Assembly (NCBI GenBank): GCA_947487205.1
Contig: CANKVU010000001.1
Coordinates: forward strand, 1-64,000
Length of the DNA stretch: 64,000 bases
Origin: an uncultured Paracoccaceae bacterium
GTDB lineage: Bacteria > Pseudomonadota > Alphaproteobacteria > Rhodobacterales > Rhodobacteraceae
Reading direction: 5' to 3'
In this document: positions 37,668 through 64,000 of the stretch, piece after piece
Numbering within the stretch: the first letter of the stretch is position 1
Layout of the letters: each line of letters opens with the position of its first letter
Position numbers and translations under genes: made by a program
The notes under the pieces: model-generated
Database searches by the model: none
Seen by the model: the letters and a program-made list of their open reading frames with translations, nothing else
Told to the model about the DNA's origin: nothing

Positions 37668-37780
37668 GCGTCGCGACCCGTCACGCCGTTCCCGGCCGCT
37701 GCGCTGTCCGGGACAGCGTGATTTCCCGACGCATTCCCCTACGTCAGATCGACAACGACAAGAATCGAACGGGGGATGCA

Positions 37781-39190
37781 ATGTCTGACGAAGCGACGTT
37801 TCAGCGGGTGTTGGGGCGCTGGGATATCCTGGCCCTCGCCTTCGGGGCGATGGTGGGCTGGGGATGGGTGGTGCTCGCGGGCACCCAGATCCGCGCGGGC
37901 GGCACGCTCGGCGCGGTGCTCGCCTTCGCGGCGGGGGGCTTCGCGATCTTCCTCATCTCGCTCACCTATGCCGAACTGTGCTCGGCCATGCCCAAGACCG
38001 GCGGAGAGCATATCTACTCCTATCGCGCGCTGGGATTGGCGGGCTCCTTCATCTGCACCTGGGCGGTCGTCCTGGGCTACGTCGCCGTGACGGCGTTCGA
38101 GGCGGTCGCCCTGCCCACGGTGCTGGAATACCTGGCGCCCAATTATCAATGGGGGCGGCTCTGGACCGTCGCGGGCTGGGACGTGACCCTGACCTGGGCG
38201 CTGACGGGATCGGTGGGCGCGATCTTCATGACGTGGATCAACTACCGCGGCATCTCGTTCTCGGCCGCCTTGCAGAAGATCTTCGTCTTCGCCCTGGGGA
38301 TCGTGGGCCTCGCGCTCATCATCGGCAGCTTCTTCGCCGGCGAGGTCGCCAACACGTCTCCGCAATTCGTCGACGGCTTCGGCGGCTGGATGTCGGTGCT
38401 GGTGATGACGCCCTTCCTCCTGGTCGGGTTCGACGTGATCCCGCAGGCCGCGGAAGAGATCGACCTGCCCCACCGCGCCATCGGCAAGGTGCTGCTGCTG
38501 TCGGTCGCCATGGCGACGGTGTGGTACATCCTCATCATCGTGGCGGTCTCGCTGATGCTGGACGGCACCGCGCTGGAAGAGACGGAGCTGGCCCCCGCCG
38601 ACGCGCTGGCCGCGGTGGTGGGCGCCGGGTGGGGCGGGCAATTCCTGGTCTTCGCCGGGCTTTGCGGCATCCTGACCAGCTGGAACGCCTTCTTCATCGG
38701 CGGCAGCCGGGCGATCTACGCCATGGCGCGGTCGGGCATGCTGCCCGCGTTCCTGGCGCGCATGCACCCGGTCCACCGCACGCCGGTGAACGCGATCCTG
38801 CTGATCGGCGCGCTGGCCACCATCGCGCCGTTCCTGGGCCGTTCGGCGCTCGTCTGGTTCGTCGATGCCGGCGGCTTCGGCATCGTCATCGCCTATGTGC
38901 TGGTGGCCGTCTCCTTCCTCGTGCTGAGGCGGCGGGAACCCGACATGCCGCGCCCCTACCGCGTCCCGCAGGGCGAGCGGATCGGCTGGGCGGCGGTGAT
39001 CCTGGGCGGGGCATTGGCGGTGCTGTACCTGCCCGGCATGCCCTCGGCGCTGATCTGGCCGGCCGAATGGCTGATCGTCGGATTGTGGTCGCTGGCCGGT
39101 CTGGGGCTGTGGTCGATGGGCAAGGCCCAGGTCGGCACCGCCCGACAGACCGAGATCATGGAGGAGGAGGTGATGCGCGCCGAGCGCTGA
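37781..39190 (+). CDS. APC family amino acid/polyamine permease
   Basis: A 469-aa permease of the amino acid-polyamine-organocation superfamily with 12 spans. The N-terminal signature FGAMVGWGWVVLAG lies in span 1, LTYAELCSAMPKTGGEHIYSYRALG in spans 2-3, and PFLLVGFDVIPQAAEEIDLP in span 6. The ATG at 37781 follows GGGGGA; the frame extends upstream over poorly coding sequence. The substrate is not certain. It is the nearest permease to the decarboxylase/amidase locus at 41-50 kb, but phospholipid genes lie between, so a link is speculative. Confidence 0.82.
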   Translation: MSDEATFQRVLGRWDILALAFGAMVGWGWVVLAGTQIRAGGTLGAVLAFAAGGFAIFLISLTYAELCSAMPKTGGEHIYSYRALGLAGSFICTWAVVLGYVAVTAFEAVALPTVLEYLAPNYQWGRLWTVAGWDVTLTWALTGSVGAIFMTWINYRGISFSAALQKIFVFALGIVGLALIIGSFFAGEVANTSPQFVDGFGGWMSVLVMTPFLLVGFDVIPQAAEEIDLPHRAIGKVLLLSVAMATVWYILIIVAVSLMLDGTALEETELAPADALAAVVGAGWGGQFLVFAGLCGILTSWNAFFIGGSRAIYAMARSGMLPAFLARMHPVHRTPVNAILLIGALATIAPFLGRSALVWFVDAGGFGIVIAYVLVAVSFLVLRRREPDMPRPYRVPQGERIGWAAVILGGALAVLYLPGMPSALIWPAEWLIVGLWSLAGLGLWSMGKAQVGTARQTEIMEEEVMRAER

Positions 39191-39194
39191 GGCG

Positions 39195-39812
39195 TCAGAC
39201 CTTCCGCAGCCGCAGGAAGGTCATCATGCCGAAGGGCGGCGCGGCGCGCCGCTCCACCAGGCTCAGGCGCGCCGCCCCCGTCACCGTCTCGATCGGGAAG
39301 TCGGAATGCCAGCCCAGAAGGTCGGCGAACGGGGCCACCGCGCGTTCCAGCCGGGCGAGGGCCCCGCTCTCGCGCGCGAAGTGGTTGGTGATGACGAGGT
39401 GTCCGCCGGGGCGCAGGACGCGCACCATCTCGCCCATGACGCGATCGGGCTCGGGCACGACCGAGATCATGTGCATCGCCACCACCGCGTCGAAACTGCC
39501 ATCGGCGAAATCGAGGCTGCGGGCGTCCATCTCGCGCAGGGACACGACGTGGTCGAGCCGCTCGCGCGCCACCCGCGCGCGCGCCTTGGACAGCATATCG
39601 GAGGAGAAGTCGATGCCCGTGACCCGGGCCCGGCCGTCGTAATAGGGCAAGGCCAGCCCGGTGCCCACGCCCACCTCGAGCACCGCCTGCGCGTCGAGCG
39701 CGTTGACGCGCCGCACGGTGTCCCCGCGCGCCCCCGCGGTCGCCGCCCCGAAGGTCCGGTCATAGATCGGCGCCCAGCGGGCATAGGATTTGGTGACGGC
39801 ATTGCTGTCCAT
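39195..39812 (-). CDS. pmtA: Phosphatidylethanolamine N-methyltransferase (Rhodobacter PmtA type)
   Basis: A 205-aa SAM-dependent methyltransferase. The start SYARWAPIYDRTFG is that of the Rhodobacter-type PmtA. The SAM site is VLEVGVGTGLALPYYDG with GIDFSSDML, and HMISVVPEPDRVMGEMVRVLRPGGHLVI follows. It would convert phosphatidylethanolamine to phosphatidylcholine by three methylations. The call is supported by position: psd and pssA lie immediately upstream on the same strand, so one cluster holds the PS-PE-PC route. Ubiquinone-type methyltransferases share the fold and are the alternative. Confidence 0.82.
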   Translation of the reverse strand: MDSNAVTKSYARWAPIYDRTFGAATAGARGDTVRRVNALDAQAVLEVGVGTGLALPYYDGRARVTGIDFSSDMLSKARARVARERLDHVVSLREMDARSLDFADGSFDAVVAMHMISVVPEPDRVMGEMVRVLRPGGHLVITNHFARESGALARLERAVAPFADLLGWHSDFPIETVTGAARLSLVERRAAPPFGMMTFLRLRKV

Positions 39813-39818
39813 GGGGGA

Positions 39819-40577
39819 TCACTCCTTGTCGGCCGGGCGCCACAGGGCGCGGATCGAACCGACCAGCCCCAAGACATAGAGGCCGGTCAGCGCAATGAGC
39901 GTGGCCCAAGTGTAGATGAGGAGCGCGGTGACCACGAGAACCGCGCCCAACATGACGTAGGGCACCTGCGCGCGCGAGATGCGGACGTTCTTGAACGACC
40001 GCGTCGGCAGGCGGCTGATCATCAGGAACCCCACCAGCGCGGTATAGGCGGCCAGCGCCCCCGCGGGCAGGACCGGCGGCACCGAAAGGTGGAGCGACAC
40101 GACGAGCGGCAGCAGCACGAGGATCGCGCCCGCCGGCGAGGGGACGCCCACGAAATGGTCCGCCGGCCCGCCCTCGCCCTGTACCTTCGCGTCGACGTTG
40201 AACCGGGCCAGGCGCATCAGGCAGCAAAGCGCGAAGCCCAGGCAGGCGAGCCAGCCCAGGCCCCCGATCGCCTCGAGCGACCACGCATAGAGGATGAGGC
40301 CGGGCGCGACCCCGAAATTCAGGAAATCGGCCAGCGAATCGAGTTCCGCCCCAAGGAGCGACTTGGCCCTGAGGAGCCGCGCCAGCCGGCCGTCGAGCGT
40401 GTCGAGAACCACCGCGACCAGGATCAGCCGCACCGCCCAGCCGTATTCCCCCTGGAAGCCGAACCGGATCGCGGTCATCCCCGCGCAGACCGCCGCCAGC
40501 GTCAGGAGGTTCGGCAGGAGCGAGACCAGGGGCAGGCTCGGCCGGTCCTCGTCGGGGCGCGCGGGGGGGGATGCCAT
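39819..40577 (-). CDS. pssA: Phosphatidylserine synthase (CDP-diacylglycerol-serine)
   Basis: A 252-aa membrane enzyme making phosphatidylserine from CDP-diacylglycerol and serine. The CDP-alcohol phosphotransferase signature with its Asp residues is complete in DTLDGRLARLLRAKSLLGAELDSLAD. About eight hydrophobic segments follow. The ATG at 40577 overlaps the psd stop (TGATG). The gap to pmtA is 6 bases. Confidence 0.94.
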   Translation of the reverse strand: MASPPARPDEDRPSLPLVSLLPNLLTLAAVCAGMTAIRFGFQGEYGWAVRLILVAVVLDTLDGRLARLLRAKSLLGAELDSLADFLNFGVAPGLILYAWSLEAIGGLGWLACLGFALCCLMRLARFNVDAKVQGEGGPADHFVGVPSPAGAILVLLPLVVSLHLSVPPVLPAGALAAYTALVGFLMISRLPTRSFKNVRISRAQVPYVMLGAVLVVTALLIYTWATLIALTGLYVLGLVGSIRALWRPADKE

Positions 40578-41254
40578 CAGCCCTCCGATCCCGGAACGGT
40601 CAGGTCGGCGATCACCGTCTCGCCGGCGATGGCGGTCTGGCCCACGGCGACCGCCGGTTCGACCCCCGGCGGCAGATACACGTCGAGCCGCGAGCCGAAC
40701 CGGATCAGGCCGAACCGCTGCCCGGTTTCCAGCCGGTCGCCCTGGGCCGCGAAGCACAGGATCCGCCGGGCGACCAGGCCCGCGATCTGGACCACCGCGA
40801 GCCGCGCGCCGGACTCGGTCTTGATCGCCAGGGCGTTGCGCTCGTTGTCCTCGCTAGCCTTGTCGAGCGAGGCGTTGACGAAGGTGCCGGGGCGATAGGC
40901 GATGGCGGTGATCCGCCCCGCGACCGGCATCCGGTTCACGTGGCAATCGAACACCGACATGAAGACGCTGACCCGCGTCAGCGGCACCGCCTCGAACCCC
41001 AGTTCGGCCGGCGGCACGGCCGGCCCGACATGCGACACGATCCCGTCCGCGGGACTGACGACCAGACCGGGCCGGGCCGGAGTGACACGTTCGGGATCAC
41101 GGAAGAAGTAGTAGCACCAGATCGTCAGGAGGACGCCGATCCAGCCCAGCGGCGCGGCGATCACGAAGAGCGCCAGCGTCACGGCGGCGAAGATCGCCAC
41201 GAAGCGGCGGCCGTCGGGATGCATCGGCTTCAGCACGACATCGCGCATGCGCAT
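40577..41254 (-). CDS. psd: Phosphatidylserine decarboxylase, short type
   Basis: A 225-aa pyruvoyl enzyme that turns phosphatidylserine into phosphatidylethanolamine. An N-terminal hydrophobic region ([22 protein letters not shown]) anchors it; the [12 protein letters not shown] and [16 protein letters not shown] motifs are conserved. The self-cleavage site is the Gly-Ser of RFGSRLDV near the C-terminus, the form found in the short alphaproteobacterial enzymes rather than LGST. Coupled to pssA by a TGATG overlap. Confidence 0.94.
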
Positions 41255-41327: not shown

Positions 41328-42314
41328 TCAGGCCGCCTGTCCCTCGGTGGCCAGCCGCACGGTCAGGTCCCAGTGCGGCGACTCGTCGAGCAGCACGCGG
41401 CGCGACAGGCCCGGCCAGTTCACGGTCATCGCCCGCTCCGCCGGCCGGTAGGCGGCGGTATAGAGCGTGCCGAAGCCGCGGACGAACCCGGGCACCCGCA
41501 GGGGGGGCGCCAGGAACCGCTCCACCAGGTCCCCGCCCGGATCGGGCCGCGCGATCAGGTGCTCCAGACAGGCCAGGCGTTCCCGCGTGCGCGTCAGGCG
41601 CGCGTGATCGGGCCATTCGGGGTCGGCGCGCTGGTGGTTCGTGGCGACCCCCTTGCTCCGCAGTTCCGGGGCGCGGTCGGGCGCGACCACCACCGTCGCG
41701 ATCCGCCCCGCCGCATCGACGGCGGTGACGTTGTAGCTCATGTGCGTGGGTACCCGCCGCAGGATCCGCACCGCCTCCTCGGTGGTGGTCGCGACCTGCA
41801 GCACGTAGCGCAGGATCAGGGGGATGCCGAACCCCTGCCCGACCTGCCGGCGGCCGCCGAAGGCGAGCGACAGGCACAGCCCCGCGTCGTTCATCCCGTC
41901 GAGCAATCCCCAGAGCCCGTCGCTCACGCCGACCACCCGCCGCCCGAGCCAGTCGGTCCGCAGGAGCAGGCAGTCGAACGCGTCCGCCCCGTAATCGTAG
42001 TTCCGGACCAGAACCGGGTCCGCCCCCCCCACCGCCGCCTGCGAGCAGGCCTTGATGTAGGCGGGCGGCGACCAGAAGCTGAGGAACCGCGCCTGATCGT
42101 CGCTGGCGCCCGCGCAAAGCCGCTCCCACAGGGGCAGCAGCGCGTGCATGTGCCGGTCGATCGCCGCGCGGCAGAGGTCGAGCGGCGCCCGCGCCTCGGG
42201 CCCGTCCTGGAACCACCAGGATCGATAGGCGGGCCAGGCGTGGTCGAGAAGCGCGGGCCACTCCGCGAGGCGGTCGTCGAAGGACCGCGCGCTCCATACG
42301 AACTCCGCCGTCAT
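41328..42314 (-). CDS. C45-family autoproteolytic acyltransferase/amidohydrolase
   Basis: A 328-aa Ntn-type enzyme of the acyl-CoA:isopenicillin N acyltransferase / linear amide C-N hydrolase group. The expected processing cysteine is in YIKACSQAAVGGADPVLVRNYDYG, where CS opens the mature beta chain and RNYDYG matches the usual NWD-type strand. SDGLWGLLDGMNDAGLCLSLAF, RYVLQVATTTEEAVRIL and MSYNVTAVDAAG follow in family order, and VATNHQRAD is the later conserved His/Asn region. The substrate is unknown: members cleave or form amide bonds of acylated amino compounds. The start is 7 bases after the ATP-grasp stop, so a ligase and an amide-acting enzyme are made together. Confidence 0.82.
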   Translation of the reverse strand: MTAEFVWSARSFDDRLAEWPALLDHAWPAYRSWWFQDGPEARAPLDLCRAAIDRHMHALLPLWERLCAGASDDQARFLSFWSPPAYIKACSQAAVGGADPVLVRNYDYGADAFDCLLLRTDWLGRRVVGVSDGLWGLLDGMNDAGLCLSLAFGGRRQVGQGFGIPLILRYVLQVATTTEEAVRILRRVPTHMSYNVTAVDAAGRIATVVVAPDRAPELRSKGVATNHQRADPEWPDHARLTRTRERLACLEHLIARPDPGGDLVERFLAPPLRVPGFVRGFGTLYTAAYRPAERAMTVNWPGLSRRVLLDESPHWDLTVRLATEGQAA

Positions 42315-42321
42315 CGTCTCC

Positions 42322-43770
42322 TCAGCCGAGCTTGAACCGGGGATAGGGAACGGCTTGCGCCACCGTCTCGCCCGCGGTGAAGAGCGCCTTCATGCCGGCC
42401 GCCCATTTCTCGGCATGCTCGGTCAGCTTGAAATCGTCGTCCATCATCCGCCCCCGCACCACCAGGATGCCCAGATCGGCGCCCTCGTAGCGGTGATCGC
42501 CCGCCTTCAGGATGCGAAGGAAGAAGGCTTCGTCGTCGCCCTCCACCGCCCGCCGGTGGTAGTCGAACCGGTCATAGGCCACCGTGCCGTCGGCATCCAT
42601 CCGGTAGATGCCGGTATAGGGTGCCGCGGTCAGGATGTCCGTATCCTCGCCGGTATACTTGATCACCATCTGCGACCAGTCGTCGATCATCTCGGCATCG
42701 GCCCAGCGGGCGTTGAGTTCGTCGATGTCGATGTCGAAGGTCGCATCCGAGAATTCCAGCAGGTGGAACAGGAACAGCGGCGCGTCCGCATGGGCGAAGG
42801 CGGCGTGGTTGGTCATCGAGGTCGTGCCGGCGATGCGCGGGTTCAGTTCGCCCAGCCAGACCTCCTCGGTCTCCTTGTCGATCAGGAAGTCGAGCTCGAA
42901 ATAGCCGCGATAGCCGTTCCGCCGCAGCTGCTCGCCGAACTTGAACGTGTACTCGCGCGCCTTCTGACGGATCTCCTCCGAGAAGGCGGTGGAGAAGACC
43001 TCGTTCCCGCACCAGCCCCCCTTGTGGGGCGTCAGTTGCGGAAAGCCCACGAGTTCGGTCATCAGCGGCCCCACCACGGTGCCCGAGGCGGTGGTGCAGG
43101 CCTCGATCGCCGAGCCGCGGCAATCGATCATCTTCATGACCTTGACCTCGCCCTGGCCGACGATGCCCTCCTTCTCCTCCTCGAATTCTTCCTCGGAGGT
43201 GATGAAATAGGTCGTCTCGCCGCTGTCGCCGAAGGCCGACTGCACCACGAGGCGATCGCCCAGCCCGTTCTCCTTGGCGATGCGGCACAGGTCGTTCCAG
43301 TCCTTCACCTCGGACAGGACGTTCGGCACCGAGGGCACGCCGGCCTCGTTGCCGATGCGGACCGTCTTGATCTTGTCGTCGCAGCTCTCGCGCAGCTCGG
43401 CCTTCGGGAACCAGATCTCGCCGCCCAGCTCCTTCACCAGCCGCTCGGTCTCCTCGTCGAACATCAGGAAGACGAAGACCGGATCACCGCCGCGCCCCTT
43501 CACGAACTCGATCACCTCGGGGTGCTGCAGGAGGTAATTGTTGATGTCCTCGATCGACTCGAAGATCCCGTGCTCGCGGGGGCCGGGCACGAAGGTGTTC
43601 GGGTGCCGCCCGTCATAGCAGTCGATATAGCTGATGTTCTTGAAGTTCCTCACCCATTCGTCGATGCCGAGAAGGTTGTAGTTGGTCCCCGAGACGAAGT
43701 AGATCGGCCGCTCGTTGCGGTGGAAAAACCGCCGGATCTCCGAGATGTTCTTGAGGTGCGTGGCGCTCAT
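42322..43770 (-). CDS. ATP-grasp ligase (biotin-carboxylase-like)
   Basis: A 482-aa ATP-grasp enzyme. The lysine/glutamate ATP site reads FPKAELRESCDDKIKTVRIGNEAGVPSVPN and LVVQSAFGDSGETTYFI. The metal-binding Glu/Asn lies in GYFELDFLIDKETEEVWLGELNPRIAG. No biotin-acceptor partner is nearby and the length differs from biotin carboxylase, so an amide or peptide ligase acting on a carboxylate and an amine is the better inference. The ATG at 43770 gives MSATHLKNISEIRRFF; 18 upstream basic codons are discarded. Flanked by the decarboxylase (79 bases upstream) and the C45 enzyme (7 bases downstream). Confidence 0.8.
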   Translation of the reverse strand: MSATHLKNISEIRRFFHRNERPIYFVSGTNYNLLGIDEWVRNFKNISYIDCYDGRHPNTFVPGPREHGIFESIEDINNYLLQHPEVIEFVKGRGGDPVFVFLMFDEETERLVKELGGEIWFPKAELRESCDDKIKTVRIGNEAGVPSVPNVLSEVKDWNDLCRIAKENGLGDRLVVQSAFGDSGETTYFITSEEEFEEEKEGIVGQGEVKVMKMIDCRGSAIEACTTASGTVVGPLMTELVGFPQLTPHKGGWCGNEVFSTAFSEEIRQKAREYTFKFGEQLRRNGYRGYFELDFLIDKETEEVWLGELNPRIAGTTSMTNHAAFAHADAPLFLFHLLEFSDATFDIDIDELNARWADAEMIDDWSQMVIKYTGEDTDILTAAPYTGIYRMDADGTVAYDRFDYHRRAVEGDDEAFFLRILKAGDHRYEGADLGILVVRGRMMDDDFKLTEHAEKWAAGMKALFTAGETVAQAVPYPRFKLG

Positions 43771-43849
43771 GTCCGGGACTCCCCTGCTGGGTCCTGTCAC
43801 GCGGCGTCTACGGCCGCTTGGCACTCGTCACGAAACCGGAAAGCGGTGG

Positions 43850-46642
43850 CTACCGCGTCATTTCGCTGGGGGCGGCGAGCTGCGCCTCCAGCGCCTCGGG
43901 GGTAAAGATCCTCAACCCCAGATCGGGGCGATAGCCGTGGATTTCGCTCACGTCGAGCGCCCGCATGAAGTCGATCACCTGCCGGTCGATGACCTGGCCC
44001 GGAACCAGGATCGGGAAGCCCGGCGGATAGGGGGTTATGAACGAGGCCGAGACCAGTTCCTCGCCCTTGTTCAGACGCCGCAGGAGCGCCCCGTCCAGAC
44101 CCACATAATCGCAATTCTCCGAGGCGTAGGCCGCGAAGAAGGCGCGCCGGATGTCCCCCGCCTGGGTCGACTCGTCCCGGAACGCCGCGTGGAAGCACGA
44201 GAAGTCCGGCAACGGCGGTACCTCCTCCATCAGCCCGCGGACGCGGTTCTCCATCGACTTGCGCTCCATCTTGGAGGCGTTCTCGCTCGTCTCGTCGAGA
44301 CTGCGGGCGAAATCGACGAGGATCTCCAGAAGGTAGGCCACCGAGGACCGGGTGGTGCCGATATTGGTCAGGAACAGCACCGTGTTGCGCGAGGTCTTGT
44401 TCACCTGGATCCCGTAGCGCTTCATCAGGATCTCGGTCTTGAACGTATCCCCGTCATGCCCGGTGCGCCCGACCAGCAGCGTGATCTTGGTGGGGTCGAG
44501 CACGAATTCGTCGCGCCCCCAGATTTGCAGCGCGTCGGTCCATCCCTTGCCCCTGCCGTGATAGACCTCGACGCCGCTCTCGCGATGCGCCTCGGGGATC
44601 AGGTCGGCGGGTGTCAGGATCTTGAAATAGCGCTGCAGGATCGGGTGGTTGGAGATCGCCTGCCGGATCGACATGGCGCATTCGATCTGGTTCTGGACGA
44701 ACTCGAACCCTTCCAGTTCCACCTGCCGCCGGCCCACGTCGAGCGAGGCGATGATCTGGTAATTGGGCGAGGTCGAGGTGTGGGTCATGTAGGCCTCGTG
44801 AAAGGCCTGCTCGGTCTCGCCCCGGTAATCCTGGTCGTAGACGTGGATCATCGACCCCTGCCTGAGGGAGGTCAGGGTCTTGTGCGTCGATTGCGTGGAA
44901 TAGACGCGCACCCGCGCGTCCGGCGGCGCCTTCAGGCGGGTGTCGAGCCACGCCTCGTCGCCGGCGTCCTGCAGGGCCACGCATTGCTCGTCCCACGCCG
45001 TGGCCCGCTCGGGCGTGTCCAGCCGTTCCTTCAGGACGCGGGCGCATTGCATCGCGGTGCGCTGGCGGTAGGCCGGGTTGAACCGGGCGAAGCCGAACCA
45101 GGCCTCGTCCCACAGGAACACCAGGTCCTTCTTGATGGCGAGGCATTCCTCCATCACCCGGTCGACGTTGTAGACCAGCCCGTCGAAGGTGCAGTTGGTC
45201 AGCAGCACCATCCGCACCCGGTCGAGCTGCCCCGCGGCACGCAGCCGCAAGAGGTGGCCCTTGATCTCCCGCAGCGGCACGGCGCCGTACATCGAGAACT
45301 TGTCGAGCGGATAGCTGTCCATGTAGACGACATGCGCCCCGGCCAGGACCATGCCGTAATGGTGGGACTTGTGGCAGTCGCGGTCCACCAGAACGATGTC
45401 GCCGGGCCGGATCAGCGCCTGCACGACGATCTTGTTCGAGGTCGAGGTGCCGTTGGTGACGAAGAAGCTGTGCTGGGAGCCGAAGGCGCGCGCGGCCAGT
45501 TCCTGCGCCTGCTTGATCGGCCCCTTCGGCTCCAGCAGGCTGTCGAGCCCGCCGCTCGTCGCCGAGGTTTCGGCGAGGAAGATGTTCGGACCGTAGAACG
45601 CGCCCATGTCCTGGATCCAGTGACTGCGCGAGATCGACTTGCCCCGGCTGATCGGCATGGCGTGGAACACGCCGGTGGGCTGGCGGGAATATTTTTTCAG
45701 CGCGGTGAAGAACGGCGTCTCGAAGCGGTGGTTGACCCCCCGCAGGATGTTGAGGTGCAGCTCGAAGAAGTCTTCCTGGTTGTAGAACACCCGCTGCAGG
45801 CCGCGCAGGTCGGCGCCGGCGATCTCCTCCACCGAGCGGTCGGTGACGAGGTAGAGGTCCAGTTCGGGGCGGATCTTGCCGATCAGGTTGCAGGTCTCGG
45901 GCGCGTACTGGACCGGGCGCAGGTTGTCGATCTCGGCCAGCCCGCGGATGCGGTCGAGGTAGGTGCGCAGCATCGCCCGGTCGGCATTGGTGTACAGGGT
46001 CAGCCCGTTGCGGACCACCGCGGCCTGAATGTTGTGGTTGAACAGGATCGCGATCAGCGCATCCTCGAGCGAGGGGACGACCACCACCTCGTAGGTGAAC
46101 GGGTCCTCCGCCCGGCGCACCTTGCGCAGGTTCGCCCGCAGGGCGGCGGTCTGCTGCTCGGTCAGGTTGTCGACGATCAGGACCTCGAAATACGGCCGCC
46201 CCAGGCTCGCCTCGTCCGACGGCAAGAGCGTCGCGTCCTCGAAGATCTCGGGATCCTCCGCCTCGCCGAAGAGCGGGATCATCCGCTTGCGGTAGGCCCC
46301 CGAACTGAGCGCGCGCGCCACCCGCCGCACGGCATTGGAGAAATCGACGACATCGTTCTGCTTCAGCAGCCGCCGGATCCGCTCGAAGGCGTCGAAGCCG
46401 GGAAAGGCCCAGTAGATCTCCACCGGCGCGAGCAGGTCGAAGATCTCGTGCGCCTCGGCGGCGCGGGCGGCCTTCCGCCGGTCGGTCAGACTGTTCTGGG
46501 CCAGATCCTCGGCGATCTCTCGCAACGCGTTCCACCGGTCGGCCCTGAGCTGAAAGGCCGAATAGGCATCCCCCACGAGGGGGCGGTTCCTGTCCTCCCC
46601 CGGGGATTGTCCGGTGGCGACCACCGATGAGATCTCGTCCAT
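43850..46642 (-). CDS. Orn/Lys/Arg decarboxylase family PLP enzyme, extended
   Basis: A 930-aa fold-type I PLP enzyme. The PLP Lys is in STQSTHKTLTSLRQGSMIH, the cofactor Asp in FLWDEAWFGFARFNPAY, and TSATSGGLDSLLEPKGPIKQAQELAARAFG with NGTSTSNKIV is the canonical start of the major domain. A C-terminal domain of the family follows (about 760-930). It is about 200 residues longer than the usual inducible Orn, Lys or Arg decarboxylases (710-760 aa), the excess lying in the N-terminal 200 before the receiver-like wing domain. GGAGGG precedes the ATG at 46642. Whether it acts on ornithine, lysine, arginine or a modified amino acid cannot be read. Confidence 0.85.
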   Translation of the reverse strand: MDEISSVVATGQSPGEDRNRPLVGDAYSAFQLRADRWNALREIAEDLAQNSLTDRRKAARAAEAHEIFDLLAPVEIYWAFPGFDAFERIRRLLKQNDVVDFSNAVRRVARALSSGAYRKRMIPLFGEAEDPEIFEDATLLPSDEASLGRPYFEVLIVDNLTEQQTAALRANLRKVRRAEDPFTYEVVVVPSLEDALIAILFNHNIQAAVVRNGLTLYTNADRAMLRTYLDRIRGLAEIDNLRPVQYAPETCNLIGKIRPELDLYLVTDRSVEEIAGADLRGLQRVFYNQEDFFELHLNILRGVNHRFETPFFTALKKYSRQPTGVFHAMPISRGKSISRSHWIQDMGAFYGPNIFLAETSATSGGLDSLLEPKGPIKQAQELAARAFGSQHSFFVTNGTSTSNKIVVQALIRPGDIVLVDRDCHKSHHYGMVLAGAHVVYMDSYPLDKFSMYGAVPLREIKGHLLRLRAAGQLDRVRMVLLTNCTFDGLVYNVDRVMEECLAIKKDLVFLWDEAWFGFARFNPAYRQRTAMQCARVLKERLDTPERATAWDEQCVALQDAGDEAWLDTRLKAPPDARVRVYSTQSTHKTLTSLRQGSMIHVYDQDYRGETEQAFHEAYMTHTSTSPNYQIIASLDVGRRQVELEGFEFVQNQIECAMSIRQAISNHPILQRYFKILTPADLIPEAHRESGVEVYHGRGKGWTDALQIWGRDEFVLDPTKITLLVGRTGHDGDTFKTEILMKRYGIQVNKTSRNTVLFLTNIGTTRSSVAYLLEILVDFARSLDETSENASKMERKSMENRVRGLMEEVPPLPDFSCFHAAFRDESTQAGDIRRAFFAAYASENCDYVGLDGALLRRLNKGEELVSASFITPYPPGFPILVPGQVIDRQVIDFMRALDVSEIHGYRPDLGLRIFTPEALEAQLAAPSEMTR

Positions 46643-46664
46643 AAGCCCTCCCTGTTTCAGTGGA

Positions 46665-47678
46665 TCAGTTAGACCCAGATCCTTCCGCGACAAAAGTCCG
46701 AATTTGCGGCGCCGTGTCCGGAGCGGCGGTCGCCTCCGTGCCGGGAATGCCCTCGGGCATGGGAACGTCGCTCTTTCCGGCCAGCTTTCGCCGCGGAGAG
46801 GGTTCGCCAAGGCCGCCCGTCGCCCCCTGGCCCGGCATCGACAGCGGGCCCAGCGTGTGCAGATAGGCATCCGCCCCGCTCTGGCGGTCGTAGACGGGGA
46901 AGCGCGCCTCGCGGTCGCGGAAGCTCTTGAGCACCTGGCCCAGCCCCTTCATGCCGGTCTCGCGCTGGCGCCGCACCACGTCGAGGTCGATCTCGATGGG
47001 AAAGATGTCCTCTTGCCCGGCGGATTGGTGCAGGACCGTCGCCGAGGGATCGACCACCAGCGACCGGCCGTTGCCGCCCGCGCCGAGCCCGTTCACGTCG
47101 AAGACGTAGCACTGGAACTGCGCCGCGGTCGCCCGCGCGATGGCGAGTTCCGCATCCCTGTCCGAGGTCCCCGTCAGCACCGGGTGCAGCAGCACTTCGA
47201 CCCCTTGCGCGGTCAGGTGGCGCGTCGTTTCCGGGAACCAGATGTCATAGCAGATCGACAGGCCGAACCGTCCGACCCCGGGCACGTCGAAGATGCAGAA
47301 ATCGGTGCCGGCCGCGACCCCGGCCTCGTAGGGCCGGAACGGGAACATCTTGGAATAGCGCGACACGACCTGCCCGTCGGGATCGATCACGACCGAGGTG
47401 TTCAGGATCCGCCCGTCGGCGGTCTTCTCGAACATCGAGCCCGGGATCAGCCAGATGCCGTGCTCGACGGCCTTGGCCTGGAACCGGCCGATCGTCTCGT
47501 TCGGGAACGGCTGGGCGAAATGGTCGAGCGGGCCGAACGGCGACAATTCGCTGAAAAGCGCCATCTGCGTCCAGGGAAACCGCGCCATGGTCACGTCGAC
47601 CTTGTGCAGCATCGCATCCACGTTGGACCGGGTCGCGTCCACATTCATCTGGATGCCGGCAATGGCGAAGGGGGTCAT
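46665..47678 (-). CDS. Carbon-nitrogen hydrolase (nitrilase superfamily)
   Basis: A 337-aa amidase. The catalytic Glu is in LFSELSPFGPLDHF, Lys in RYSKMFPFRPYEAG and Cys in LSICYDIWFPETTRHL. It could be an N-carbamoylputrescine-amidase-like, omega-amidase-like or other aliphatic amidase; the last 60 residues (after HTLGPLSMPGQG) are a low-complexity extension with no family match. It is the first gene of the four-gene minus-strand set, 22 bases before the decarboxylase. The 176-base gap upstream separates it from the regulator, which reads the same way. Confidence 0.85.
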   Translation of the reverse strand: MTPFAIAGIQMNVDATRSNVDAMLHKVDVTMARFPWTQMALFSELSPFGPLDHFAQPFPNETIGRFQAKAVEHGIWLIPGSMFEKTADGRILNTSVVIDPDGQVVSRYSKMFPFRPYEAGVAAGTDFCIFDVPGVGRFGLSICYDIWFPETTRHLTAQGVEVLLHPVLTGTSDRDAELAIARATAAQFQCYVFDVNGLGAGGNGRSLVVDPSATVLHQSAGQEDIFPIEIDLDVVRRQRETGMKGLGQVLKSFRDREARFPVYDRQSGADAYLHTLGPLSMPGQGATGGLGEPSPRRKLAGKSDVPMPEGIPGTEATAAPDTAPQIRTFVAEGSGSN

Positions 47679-47854
47679 CTGATCGTCTCCTAACCGGGCC
47701 GTGATCCGTCATCCGGGGGGCCCATCGTTCGTCCTGCGGCCGGACCCGGCCGGGTCCGTCCGCATCTTGTCCGGTCTCGGGGGCACGTCTCCGCGCCGCC
47801 CCCGGGCCTCCCTCACCTAGTGACGCAAGGGGAGGCGATTGAACCACCGCGGGC

Positions 47855-48415
47855 TCAGAAAGTCGGCGGCGTACACGCGCTGACCACGACGCAGGCGGTA
47901 TTGCCGATGTTGCGGAACCTGTGGGGCAGCCGCGAATCGAACAGGTAACCGTCGCCGGGATTCAGGACCCGGCTCTGCTCGCCCACCGTCACCTCGATCA
48001 CGCCCGAGATGACGATGCCCGCCTCCTCGGCGGCGTGGCGCAGCATGTCGGGGCCGGTATCGCCGCCGGGGTGATAGACCTCGCGCAGCATCTGGATCGA
48101 ATGCCGCGACGCGTCCCCCACCTGCCGCAGCGAGACCTGGGCGTCGGGATTGGCCGGCGACAATTCGGTGAACTCCGTCGCGGCGTAGAAATAGCGTGCC
48201 GGGCCGTCCTCCTCGAGGCCGGAGAAGAACTCGCTCAGGCTCATGGGGAGGGCGTCGAGCAGGCTCTTCAGCGACGCCACCGAGGGACTCGTCTTGTTCC
48301 CCTCGATCAGCGACACGGCGCTGGACGTAAGGCCGGATCGGGCGGCAAGCTGGCGCTGGGACAGGCCGCGATCCTCTCGGACCTTCCTGAGCCGGGCGCC
48401 GATGTCGAACTCCAT
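47855..48415 (-). CDS. XRE-cupin transcriptional regulator (PuuR-like)
   Basis: A 186-aa repressor-type protein. The XRE helix-turn-helix (about 8-62: ARLRKVREDRGLSQRQLAARSGLTSSAVSLIEGNKTSPSVASL) is followed by a C-terminal cupin (about 110-184) with HAAEEAGIVISGVIEVTVG and LNPGDGYLFDSRLPHRFRN. This architecture is that of PuuR, which represses putrescine catabolism and senses putrescine through the cupin. It lies between the amidase-decarboxylase set and the divergent aminotransferase gene and probably controls both. The ATG at 48415 is preferred over one 17 codons upstream. Confidence 0.88.
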   Translation of the reverse strand: MEFDIGARLRKVREDRGLSQRQLAARSGLTSSAVSLIEGNKTSPSVASLKSLLDALPMSLSEFFSGLEEDGPARYFYAATEFTELSPANPDAQVSLRQVGDASRHSIQMLREVYHPGGDTGPDMLRHAAEEAGIVISGVIEVTVGEQSRVLNPGDGYLFDSRLPHRFRNIGNTACVVVSACTPPTF

Positions 48416-48429
48416 GCGGATCCTCTTGG

Positions 48430-48600
48430 CGGGTGATGTAAAATACTCAACAGTGCCCACCCGCAACGGTCAAGGTCGCCCGGGGTTCACATTACCGGAC
48501 CGCTTCTTACGTAGAGGAAGATACGGGGGATGCCCAGCACCCCCTGCCGGATTGACAATAAAACTCAATCGACGCACGTAATACTTGCAACAGACAATGC
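48430..48600. promoter_or_regulatory. Divergent promoter region with repeated AATACT..CAACA motif
   Basis: The 197-base gap between the regulator and the aminotransferase is AT-rich for this genome. AAATACTCAACA at 48441 and AATACTTGCAACA at 48580, one near each gene start, plus the related AATAAAACTCAATC at 48557, may be operators of the XRE-cupin protein. A TTGACA at 48552 is a possible -35 element towards the aminotransferase gene; no clear -10 at ideal spacing was found. Confidence 0.45.
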
Positions 48601-48612
48601 GAGGAGCCTTCC

Positions 48613-50091
48613 ATGGCCGGCAGCACCACACCGACCCGTTCGACCCGGTCCACCCGCTCTGAGACGCAGGCGACCGGCGTCACGGATGACGCCGCGATCG
48701 CCACCTCCCCGCGTCCGGCCGGCGCGGCGGGGGCCCACACCCCCGCGCCCGAGACGGTGACGCCCTCCGTCGCCGGTGACGCCGCGCGGCCTGCGGGCGG
48801 ATCGAACGCGGCGCTGCTGCAGCGGCGCGAGGCGGCGGTCCCCCGCGGCGTGGCCTCCGCCCACCCGATCTTCGCCGAACGGGCCGAGAACGCCGAGGTC
48901 TGGGATGTCGAGGGGCGCCGCTTCATCGATTTCGCCGGCGGCATCGCGGTGCTGAACACCGGCCATCGCCACCCCAAGGTGGTCGAGGCCGCCAAGGCGC
49001 AGGAGGACAGGTTCACCCACACGTCCTTCCAGGTCCTGCCCTACGAGCCCTACATCGCCCTGGCGGAGAAGCTGAACTCCCTGGCCCCCGGCGAGGGCGC
49101 CAAGAAATCGCTCCTCGTCACCACCGGTGCCGAGGCGGTGGAGAACGCGGTCAAGATCGCCCGCGCCGCCACCGGGCGCCCGGGCGTCATCGCCTTCACC
49201 GGCGGCTATCACGGCCGCACGATGATGACGCTGGGCATGACCGGCAAGGTGTCGCCCTACAAGAAGGATATCGGCCCCTTCCCCACCGACATCTACCGCG
49301 CGCCGTTCCCCGATGCCCGTGCCGGCATCACCGTGGAGGACGCGATCAAGGGGCTCGAGACGCTGTTCCTGACCGACGCCGATCCCGCGCGCGTCGCCGC
49401 GATCATCATCGAGCCGGTGCTCGGCGAGGGCGGCTACACGCCGGTGCCCGTCGAGATGATGCAGGCCCTGCGGCGGATCTGCGACGAGCACGGCATCCTC
49501 TTGATCGCCGACGAGATCCAGGCCGGGTTCGGCCGCACCGGCACCTGGTTCGCCATCGAGCATTCGGGCGTGGTCCCCGACCTCATCACCGTGGCGAAGT
49601 CGATGGCCGGCGGGTATCCGGTCGCGGGCGTGATCGGCCGGGCCGACGTGATGGACGCGATGGGCCCCGGCGGCCTCGGCGGCACCTATGGCGGCAACCC
49701 GGTCGCCTGCGCGGCGGCCCTCGCCGCCATCGAGGCGATCGAGAGCGAGGGGCTCCTGGCCCGGTCGACCGCCCTGGGCGAGACGTTCCGCCGCCGCTTC
49801 GCCGAGATCGGCGCCCGCACCGCGCCCTGGCGGATGTGGGACATCCGCGGCCTCGGCGCCATGCTCGCGGTGGAGTTCGTCACCGATTTCGACACCGCCG
49901 CGCCCGATGCCGCGCTGACCAAGGCGGTGGTGCAGCACGCCCGCGAGCGCGGCCTGATCCTGCTGCCCTGCGGCATGCACGGCAACGCGGTGCGGATCAT
50001 GGTGCCGCTGACCGCGTCCGACGCGGTGATCGAGGAAGGCCTGCAGATCTTCGAGGCCGCCCTCGCCGAGGCCATGGCCGCGACCGCCTGA
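48613..50091 (+). CDS. GABA-type class III aminotransferase
   Basis: A 492-aa PLP aminotransferase of the 4-aminobutyrate-2-oxoglutarate group. TTGAEAVENAVKIARAATGRPG, FTGGYHGRTMMTLGMTGK, IADEIQAGFGRTGTWFAIEHSGVVPDL and the Schiff-base Lys in VAKSMAGGYPVAGV are conserved. The first 65 residues are a Ser/Thr/Ala/Pro-rich extension not usual in GabT. Being divergent from a PuuR-like regulator, it may transaminate GABA or a diamine-derived product. Substrate among GABA, 5-aminovalerate and putrescine is not settled by sequence. Confidence 0.87.
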   Translation: MAGSTTPTRSTRSTRSETQATGVTDDAAIATSPRPAGAAGAHTPAPETVTPSVAGDAARPAGGSNAALLQRREAAVPRGVASAHPIFAERAENAEVWDVEGRRFIDFAGGIAVLNTGHRHPKVVEAAKAQEDRFTHTSFQVLPYEPYIALAEKLNSLAPGEGAKKSLLVTTGAEAVENAVKIARAATGRPGVIAFTGGYHGRTMMTLGMTGKVSPYKKDIGPFPTDIYRAPFPDARAGITVEDAIKGLETLFLTDADPARVAAIIIEPVLGEGGYTPVPVEMMQALRRICDEHGILLIADEIQAGFGRTGTWFAIEHSGVVPDLITVAKSMAGGYPVAGVIGRADVMDAMGPGGLGGTYGGNPVACAAALAAIEAIESEGLLARSTALGETFRRRFAEIGARTAPWRMWDIRGLGAMLAVEFVTDFDTAAPDAALTKAVVQHARERGLILLPCGMHGNAVRIMVPLTASDAVIEEGLQIFEAALAEAMAATA

Positions 50092-63718: not shown

Positions 63719-63722
63719 GCCC

Positions 63723-63751
63723 TTGAAATGCGGCCCGGTCCGGAGCATATT
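63723..63751 (+). promoter_or_regulatory. Probable ssrA promoter
   Basis: TTGAAA and CATATT are separated by 17 bases, the spacing of a housekeeping sigma-factor promoter. The predicted start near 63757 coincides with the expected 5' end of the tmRNA acceptor piece. Confidence 0.55.
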
Positions 63752-63756
63752 CGGGA

Positions 63757-64000
63757 TGTCCCCGTCAGGGGAATATGGACATAAACGCGCACGTAATAAG
63801 CGGATCGGACCCGGGGGCGGTACCCGGCGGCTCCACCAAACATCCGATTGTTGGCGGATCATGGGGCCGAAACAGGATCGACGGACGTCTAAAGGTGTAG
63901 CTTTGTCTCGGTGAGGTACCACCGTTATCGGTCCGTAAAGCATAGTTGCCAACAACAATCATGCTCCGGTTGCGGTTGCCGCCTAAGCGGTAATCAAGAC
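63757..64000 (+). ncRNA. ssrA: Circularly permuted two-piece tmRNA (3' end may pass window edge)
   Basis: The order is that of alphaproteobacterial ssrA. The acceptor piece comes first (about 63757-63838), with a T-arm CCGGG-GGCGGTA-CCCGG and the end CGGCTCCACCA. An excised loop follows, with the hairpin ATCCG/CGGAT (63839-63862). The coding piece starts GGGGCCGAAACAGGATCGACGG at 63863, where GGGGCCG pairs with CGGCTCC of the other piece. The resume codon GCC at 63948 opens the tag ANNNHAPVAVAA, ending in TAA at 63984-63986. The product tags stalled nascent proteins for proteolysis with SmpB. The last bases are probably cut off by the window. Confidence 0.93.

What the first reader, a model, noticed from the sequence alone, without database searches (positions are those of the whole stretch)
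41328..50091. Candidate undescribed pathway: amidase, extended decarboxylase, ATP-grasp ligase and C45 amidohydrolase under a PuuR-like regulator
Four enzymes on one strand (gaps 22, 79 and 7 bases), an XRE-cupin regulator and a divergent GABA-type aminotransferase form a coherent set. Known: in the gamma-glutamyl-putrescine pathway a ligase protects the amine, a hydrolase frees the product, and a PuuR repressor plus a GABA aminotransferase complete it. Here a ligase of a different fold (ATP-grasp), two amide-acting enzymes of other folds and an amino-acid decarboxylase would make an analogous protect-convert-deprotect route. No PuuB/PuuC oxidoreductase is present, so the chemistry must differ. 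Substrates are not deducible.
Basis: partly seen in the sequence, partly recalled or inferred. Interest (0 to 1): 0.8.

Follow-up and report, generated by a model that had tools for sequence, protein, structure and literature searches.

The report
Conserved GABA-linked amide enzyme cassette
Four neighbouring enzyme genes that would make and break amide bonds and remove a carboxyl group travel together in several groups of bacteria, often beside genes that make or use the amino acid GABA, so this looks like a real metabolic pathway for which no description was found, although its exact chemicals are still unknown.

Summary
In detail: nitrilase-fold amidase (NIT), extended fold-I decarboxylase (DEC), ATP-grasp enzyme (ATPG) and C45 Ntn-hydrolase (C45) lie on one strand with gaps 22, 79 and 7, beside an XRE-cupin regulator and a GABA transaminase. 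The set is conserved: in the 80 best loci around ATPG relatives, DEC lies nearby in 80, C45 in 79, NIT in 77. It is sporadic: ATPG in 11 of 398 genomes of the phylum. A putative operator, ATWTTAAACR, recurs in relatives at the regulator, the transaminase, a glutamate-synthase-like gene and a TRAP transporter; the window has only a weak site. In a second cassette type DEC is absent and NIT-ATPG-C45 sits with genes for arginine/ornithine to GABA. DEC belongs to the solved but functionally unassigned Rv2531c family and has an invariant Asn where the compared lysine and arginine decarboxylases have Glu; six relatives without ATPG lie by AspT-type antiporters. ATPG is annotated 'biotin carboxylase' but lacks the QVEH motif. 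I infer a GABA-centred amide module: GABA supply, ATP-dependent amide formation, hydrolysis or transfer, return of GABA to central metabolism.

The parts
46665..47678 (-). NIT: nitrilase-fold carbon-nitrogen hydrolase (amidase), 337 aa, triad Glu44-Lys110-Cys143
   Evidence: PF00795 1.5e-28; no NCBIfam model above cut-off; triad in 95 of 95 aligned sequences
43850..46642 (-). DEC: extended fold-type-I PLP decarboxylase, 930 aa, full-length relative of M. tuberculosis Rv2531c (PDB 9n0n)
   Evidence: PF01276 4.5e-79; 9n0n E 3.9e-246 over residues 31-924; Asn748 in 116 of 116, Arg752 in 114 of 116
42322..43770 (-). ATPG: ATP-grasp enzyme of the 'PRK06524 biotin carboxylase' family
   Evidence: NF005096 714.6 bits, cut-off 684; model pLDDT 87.6, nearest folds biotin carboxylase and PurK; no QVEH motif
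41328..42314 (-). C45: autoproteolytic-type Ntn-hydrolase/acyltransferase, 328 aa, Cys90
   Evidence: NF040521 142.4 bits, cut-off 85; model pLDDT 92.7, nearest fold isopenicillin N acyltransferase
47855..48415 (-). REG: XRE-cupin regulator, PuuR-like
   Evidence: PF01381 and PF07883; NF007408 135.5 bits, below cut-off 211
48613..50091 (+). GABT: 4-aminobutyrate--2-oxoglutarate transaminase, divergent from REG
   Evidence: TIGR00700 559.9 bits, cut-off 506.65; below the PRK08088 and PRK07495 cut-offs
48443..48452 (+). weak operator-like site ATACTCAACA in the REG/GABT gap; a similar core lies at 48560 (AAAACTCAAT) right after TTGACA at 48552
   Evidence: 7.3 bits of a maximum 19.5 with the matrix built from relatives; second core read by eye
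37778..39190 (+). APC-family amino-acid permease, 2.1 kb from the cassette; membership uncertain
   Evidence: PF13520 6.4e-40

Best explanation
The genes form one metabolic module centred on GABA (or a very similar omega-amino acid). SHOWN: NIT, DEC, ATPG and C45 are conserved together. SUPPORTED in relatives: they share a putative regulon with a GABA transaminase, a glutamate-synthase-like enzyme and a TRAP transporter; and GABA is the hub, because one cassette type couples NIT-ATPG-C45 to a gene set that reads as arginine/ornithine to GABA, while the other has in its place the single enzyme DEC, most simply decarboxylating glutamate to GABA. INFERRED: ATPG spends ATP to join the omega-amino acid to a partner through an amide bond; C45, an IAT-like cysteine Ntn enzyme, hydrolyses that amide or passes the acyl group to another amine; NIT hydrolyses a simple amide in the same route; GABT then returns GABA to succinic semialdehyde, and a succinic-semialdehyde dehydrogenase elsewhere in the genome finishes the route. 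The partner of GABA, and whether the net flow is synthesis or breakdown, are unknown.
For: Co-occurrence in 80 loci: DEC 80, C45 79, NIT 77; in 105 loci (less 9 short duplicates): DEC 99, C45 101, NIT 91. Type B without DEC: NIT-ATPG-C45 with SpeB, AruI-like decarboxylase, aldehyde dehydrogenase, D-amino-acid dehydrogenase and an ornithine-racemase-like protein, which in Shinella is fused to an arginase domain, in Shinella (L015; L020 is a near copy) and a second, distant genome (L143); the Shinella ATPGs group with rhizobial type A ATPGs (100/100), that of L143 elsewhere, and none of 200 bootstrap trees makes type B one group. GABT passes the GABA-transaminase cut-off. Putative operator at REG 24 of 28, GltS 13 of 18, TRAP 19 of 40, against 39 of 763 other genes. 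DEC: Asn748 in 116 of 116, Arg752 in 114 of 116, Asn aligned to Glu of one arginine and two lysine decarboxylases. AspT-type antiporter near DEC in 6 of 6 ATPG-less loci and in 0 of 114 ATPG loci. SSADH above cut-off in the genome.
Against: No substrate has been measured. The window copies are divergent: ATPG sits on a long branch and no strong operator is found (7.3 of 19.5 bits). A GABT-like gene lies near in only 47 of 80 loci, and at 45% identity or more in 37 of 114. TRAP genes in loci that do have REG show a site in only 3 of 15, and NIT in 8 of 76. Ornithine- or arginine-derived diamines cannot be excluded as DEC products. Why a GABA-amide would need two amidases is unexplained. In two genomes the cassette lies in an ectoine-degradation cluster, which the GABA model does not predict. 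GltS and TRAP genes share divergent gaps, so their operator counts are not independent, and most loci are from one order. The starred branches of the tree alone do not exclude a single origin of type B.
Confidence: 0.4

Rival explanations
1. Protect-convert-deprotect, with the amino acid itself protected: ATPG acylates the side-chain amine of ornithine (or a similar amino acid), DEC (type A) or racemase/dehydrogenase/AruI/ALDH (type B) removes the alpha-carbon functions, an aminotransferase and aldehyde dehydrogenase oxidise the chain end, and C45 or NIT frees GABA.
For: Asn instead of Glu at the position aligned to the EKT glutamate of lysine and arginine decarboxylases, in 116 of 116, fits an amide side chain. 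The nearest fold of C45 is isopenicillin N acyltransferase, which by recall removes an aminoadipyl group, a homologue of gamma-glutamyl. Type B contains ornithine-racemase-like, keto-acid decarboxylase and ALDH proteins, whose free-amine intermediates would cyclise (recalled chemistry). Aminotransferase genes follow C45 in several loci.
Against: ATPG-less DEC relatives sit with AspT antiporters (6 of 6) and carry the same Asn, so the pocket is not specific to an ATPG product. In type B the free-amine route looks complete without protection; the S. meliloti IlvB1 enzyme accepts free 5-amino-2-oxopentanoate (PMC7268258, passages).
Confidence: 0.25
2. Catabolism of an imported amide or dipeptide-like compound: transporters (TRAP or peptide-type ABC) bring it in, C45 and NIT or another amidase cut it, DEC and GABT degrade the amino-acid part; ATPG activates the substrate or recycles a part.
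For: TAXI-TRAP genes in 40 of 89 loci (one of each identified by model); ABC transporters beside C45 in Roseobacter (annotated as oligopeptide type) and Rhizobium (permease similar to the Roseobacter one), with an annotated amidase and a serine hydrolase in Rhizobium.
Against: A dedicated ATP-consuming enzyme is hard to place in a purely hydrolytic route; the transporters differ between lineages while the enzymes do not.
Confidence: 0.17
3. Biosynthesis of a small secreted amide or compatible solute containing an omega-amino acid.
For: ATP-grasp fold plus IAT-like acyltransferase fold; sporadic distribution; location beside nifHDKEN on a Rhizobium plasmid.
Against: A GABA transaminase in the putative regulon points to breakdown; I recognised no exporter among the recurrent neighbour families that I identified, but several were not identified.
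Confidence: 0.1
4. ATPG is a true biotin carboxylase, as annotated.
For: NF005096 name and score; biotin-carboxylase superfamily fold.
Against: The stretch aligned to NPRIQVEH of a biotin-carboxylase-domain protein of the same genome reads NPRIAGTT in the window (one of two templates aligned); no biotin carrier or carboxyltransferase among the annotated features of six regions.
Confidence: 0.03

Closest known systems
Gamma-glutamyl-putrescine (Puu) pathway of Escherichia coli (features recalled)
   Same: XRE-cupin regulator of the PuuR kind, an ATP-dependent enzyme, an amide hydrolase and a GABA transaminase
   Different: The ATP enzyme is ATP-grasp, not glutamine-synthetase fold; hydrolases are C45 and nitrilase, not PuuD type; no PuuB or PuuC gene in the cassette; a decarboxylase is present; the regulator is below the PuuR cut-off
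Arginine/ornithine transamination network to GABA (S. meliloti CATCH-N, PMC7268258; Pseudomonas AruI/KauB recalled)
   Same: Type B neighbours are the same enzyme kinds and would end in GABA
   Different: ATPG, C45 and NIT are not named in the passages of PMC7268258 that I saw; type A has DEC instead
Rv2531c amino-acid decarboxylase family (PDB 9n0n, 9n0o, 9n0p)
   Same: Full-length homology of DEC and the same Asn-Lys-Thr motif
   Different: Reaction of Rv2531c unassigned (PMC12910592, passages); Arg752 is Ile there
Aspartate/AspT decarboxylation-antiport systems
   Same: Six ATPG-less DEC relatives sit near AspT-type antiporters, one of them also with aspartate 4-decarboxylase
   Different: No AspT gene in 114 loci with ATPG
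Isopenicillin N acyltransferase (C45)
   Same: Nearest solved fold of C45
   Different: 15-16% identity; substrate unknown

Membership tests
PuuR regulator (NF007408) | score over the NCBIfam equivalog cut-off | tested here: not met
   135.5 against 211 bits; XRE plus cupin architecture is present
Puu pathway | glutamine-synthetase-fold ligase PuuA, oxidase PuuB, dehydrogenase PuuC, hydrolase PuuD in the cluster (recalled) | tested here: not met
   None among the six genes. Glutamine-synthetase-fold (2 matches) and PF07722 (7 matches) proteins exist elsewhere in the genome; whether any is PuuA or PuuD was not resolved
Biotin carboxylase | EVNPRxQVEH-type motif with catalytic Glu (role recalled) | tested here: not met
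   hhalign (probability 93.7) with a biotin-carboxylase-domain protein of the same genome pairs NPRIQVEH with NPRIAGTT; the second template gave no alignment
Biotin carboxylase | biotin carrier and carboxyltransferase partners | tested here: inconclusive
   none among annotated features of six regions; many neighbours in other loci were not identified
PRK06524 family (NF005096) | score over the cut-off | tested here: met
   714.6 against 684 bits
Orn/Lys/Arg decarboxylase superfamily | fold-I domain with PLP lysine and aspartate | tested here: met
   PF01276; Lys588 in 115 of 116, Asp512 in 114 of 116, the rest gaps
Orn/Lys/Arg decarboxylase superfamily | Glu of the EKT motif that binds the distal amine (role recalled, not from a call) | tested here: not met
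   Asn in 116 of 116; Glu in the one arginine and two lysine decarboxylases shown
GABA--2-oxoglutarate transaminase (TIGR00700) | score over the equivalog cut-off | tested here: met
   559.9 against 506.65 bits; below the PRK08088 and PRK07495 cut-offs
C45 Ntn-hydrolase/acyltransferase | family score and nucleophile cysteine | tested here: met
   142.4 against 85 bits; Cys90 in 112 of 112
C45 Ntn-hydrolase/acyltransferase | autoproteolysis | not testable with these tools
   needs purified protein; the window has Ala-Cys where most of the 29 aligned relatives have Gly-Cys

The most novel reading that the evidence does not exclude
A new metabolic cycle: DEC is a decarboxylase of an acidic amino acid built on the lysine/arginine-decarboxylase scaffold, ATPG is a new GABA-amide ligase miscalled biotin carboxylase, and C45 moves or releases the GABA group. 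If so, the cassette also gives a functional clue to the Rv2531c decarboxylase family, whose reaction is unassigned.
Probability: 0.2. Interest if true: 0.75.

Novelty: new variant of a known kind. Interest (0 to 1): 0.55.

Why it matters
The ATP-grasp enzyme of the cassette is present in 11 of 385 sampled genomes of the window's class and 10 of 369 of the class of G086 (by its members I take it to be Gammaproteobacteria), in many marine Rhodobacterales and beside nitrogenase genes on a rhizobial plasmid. Yet it is filed as 'biotin carboxylase', and the decarboxylase family has a solved structure with no assigned reaction. The two cassette types, and the AspT-linked relatives, turn a function-unknown problem into a short list of substrates that can be assayed.

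Tried and rejected
Biotin carboxylase reading of ATPG: rejected on the missing QVEH stretch. Urea carboxylation (urea from SpeB, a urea-transporter domain in L123): dropped, since few type A loci show a ureohydrolase nearby (SpeB at 45% identity or more in 6 of 114 loci, three of them type B; SpeB-like at 42-44% also in L161 and L163). Ectoine catabolism as the general role: seen in two loci of one unnamed family (L119, L120), and DoeA or DoeB at 45% identity or more in 0 of 114 other loci. Known S. meliloti decarboxylases SMa0680/SMa0682: papers found (passages), but I did not establish that they are DEC, so they are not used. Literature searches that returned nothing on this set: 0 papers each; one unrelated paper; the library holds only open-licence PMC papers. 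PMC12329521 (Rv2531c structure) is not held; I know it only from passages and the reference list of PMC12910592. PMC8983666 (passages) gave no residue-level substrate contacts, so the role of the EKT glutamate rests on recall. Fold comparison by VIA-align was not available. In the operator test the matrix came from 18 sites beside REG in 13 loci, so the REG and GABT counts are partly circular; the TRAP genes of loci without REG (16 of 25) are the more independent count, and those of loci with REG (3 of 15) speak against it. The tree used 47 chosen ATPG rows; most Rhodobacterales rows were left out. The 29 C45 rows were chosen from 45 listed plus the window.
Full report
OBSERVATION. The six genes are as described. 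The four enzymes read on the minus strand in the order NIT, DEC, ATPG, C45; with starts at 47678, 46642, 43770 and 42314 the gaps are 22, 79 and 7. NIT is a carbon-nitrogen hydrolase with no NCBIfam model above cut-off. DEC matches the Orn/Lys/Arg decarboxylase domain. ATPG passes NF005096 ('biotin carboxylase', PRK06524). C45 passes NF040521. REG is an XRE-cupin protein whose best NCBIfam model is PuuR, below cut-off. GABT passes the GABA transaminase model TIGR00700.

CONSERVATION. Near ATPG, DEC was found in 80, C45 in 79, NIT in 77, a GABT-like gene in 47, REG in 29 and a glutamate-synthase-like gene in 17 of these 80 (protein BLAST, E below 1e-15, flank up to 10 kb). One search examined 114 loci; nine of them (L151-L159) are short copies of the places in L160-L168, which leaves 105: DEC 99, C45 101, NIT 91. 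Several misses are at contig ends (for example L091, L096, L160, L167), and a few loci repeat one organism (L040/L146 and L082/L165 have identical ATPG). The family is sporadic: ATPG at E below 1e-60 in 11 of 398 genomes of the window's phylum, 10 of 369 of the class of G086 (I take it to be Gammaproteobacteria) and 11 of 385 of the window's class; DEC in 16 of 398 of the phylum.

TYPE A NEIGHBOURHOODS. Recurrent upstream genes are a TAXI-type TRAP solute-binding protein and a fused TRAP permease (40 of 89 loci each in the family clustering; one of each identified by models) and a universal stress protein (22 of 89). In Roseobacter ponti the cassette has a cupin regulator, gabT, the glutamate-synthase-like gene and an oligopeptide-type ABC transporter. 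On Rhizobium leguminosarum plasmid L021 it lies beside nifHDKEN. L016, L017 and L021 have an ABC transporter, an amidase and a RpiR regulator as annotated or by similarity, and no NIT. In two genomes of one unnamed family (L119, L120; Halomonas-like by my guess) the order is Lrp-NIT-ATPG-C45-DEC-ALDH-transaminase; in L120, DoeA, DoeB and EutB were confirmed by curated models. In Halomonas elongata doeX lies directly before doeC (PMC3187862, passages), so the cassette is an addition there.

TYPE B NEIGHBOURHOODS. In Shinella (L015), in the near copy L020, and in a distant genome (L143), NIT-ATPG-C45 occurs without DEC, with an APC permease, SpeB, an AruI-type decarboxylase (in L015 NF005712, 737 against 500 bits), an aldehyde dehydrogenase, a D-amino-acid dehydrogenase, and a protein with an ornithine-racemase-like domain (below its cut-off) that in L015 also has an arginase domain (in L143 the protein runs off the fetched stretch). 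The L143 proteins are 53-63% identical to those of Shinella. Read together these turn arginine or ornithine into GABA (inference). The S. meliloti AruI homologue IlvB1 prefers 5-amino-2-oxopentanoate (PMC7268258, passages), which suits a route from ornithine. In a tree of 47 ATPG rows the Shinella rows fall with rhizobial type A rows (100/100) and L143 with two other type A rows; the label test, which counts only the 9 labelled rows, needs two changes for type B, and none of 200 bootstrap trees needs one, although starred branches alone do not exclude one origin. The window's own genome holds a SpeB 71% identical to that of Shinella next to an aldehyde dehydrogenase (39% identical to the Shinella one) and a succinic-semialdehyde dehydrogenase above cut-off.

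PUTATIVE REGULON. In 43 gaps beside REG the best ten-base word with one mismatch occurs in 18, against at most 9 in three shuffles. The sites read ATWTTAAACR, often just after a TGACA and sometimes twice. With a matrix from 18 such sites, the upstream regions of REG (24 of 28), GABT in loci with REG (19 of 27; without REG 4 of 21), the glutamate-synthase-like gene (13 of 18) and the TRAP protein (19 of 40; 16 of 25 in loci without REG but 3 of 15 with it) hold a site at 9 bits or more, against 39 of 763 other genes; NIT 8 of 76, C45 9 of 86, DEC 2 of 85, ATPG 2 of 89. REG and GABT counts are circular in part, divergent neighbours share one gap, and the loci are related. The window has only a weak site (7.3 bits of 19.5) and a second similar core after TTGACA, so the regulon is inferred from relatives.

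DEC. It is a full-length homologue of M. tuberculosis Rv2531c (PDB 9n0n, E 3.9e-246), a structure without an assigned reaction (PMC12910592, passages). The profile alignment pairs Asn748 with the Glu of the EKT/EKS motif in one arginine and two lysine decarboxylases. Asn748 is present in 116 of 116 and Arg752 in 114 of 116 aligned DECs; Rv2531c has the Asn but Ile at the second place. By recall the Glu binds the distal amine of the substrate. The six DEC-bearing genomes without an ATPG match (L128-L133) all carry AspT-type antiporter genes near DEC (66-100% identical to one another's reference in five, 29-33% in L133), one confirmed by model, and L133 also has aspartate 4-decarboxylase; none of the 114 ATPG loci, nor of the ten ATPG loci L118-L127, does. 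I read this as favouring an acidic or neutral substrate; it is not proof.

ATPG, C45, NIT. The ATPG model (pLDDT 87.6) is closest to biotin carboxylases and PurK at 12-16% identity. Aligned to a biotin-carboxylase-domain protein of the same genome it keeps the Glu, Asn and Arg of the ATP-grasp motif but has no QVEH; a second such protein did not align. The C45 model (pLDDT 92.7) is closest to isopenicillin N acyltransferase, then to N-acylethanolamine acid amidase and penicillin V acylase. NIT keeps its triad in 95 of 95.

VERDICT. The set is a real and conserved module for which I found no description (searches; open-licence library only). Its chemistry is best read as GABA-centred amide metabolism (0.4). 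The enzymes are of known folds, so I rate it a new variant of a known kind.

Noticed in passing
L128-L133: DEC relatives without ATPG sit near AspT-type antiporters, a possible separate decarboxylation-antiport system; L133 also has aspartate 4-decarboxylase.
   Followed up: partly
L015:17779-19563: Fusion of an ornithine-racemase-like domain with an arginase-family domain; similar proteins in L020 (full length) and L143 (partial).
   Followed up: partly
L021:9249-16474: Cassette directly beside nifHDKEN on a Rhizobium leguminosarum plasmid.
   Followed up: no
L123:3483-5654: Urea-transporter domain fused to an M23 peptidase domain upstream of DEC-ATPG-C45.
   Followed up: no
L169:6851-9265: In the window's own genome, aldehyde dehydrogenase next to a SpeB 71% identical to the Shinella type B SpeB.
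   Followed up: partly
window 39195-41254: Next to C45 on the minus strand: a PmtA-like methyltransferase (below cut-off) and two reading frames (39819-40757, 40577-41254) that by eye resemble PssA and Psd.
   Followed up: no
window 63719-64000: Alphaproteobacterial permuted tmRNA, cut off by the window end.
   Followed up: no
L025, L040: A second C45 paralogue in the same locus.
   Followed up: no
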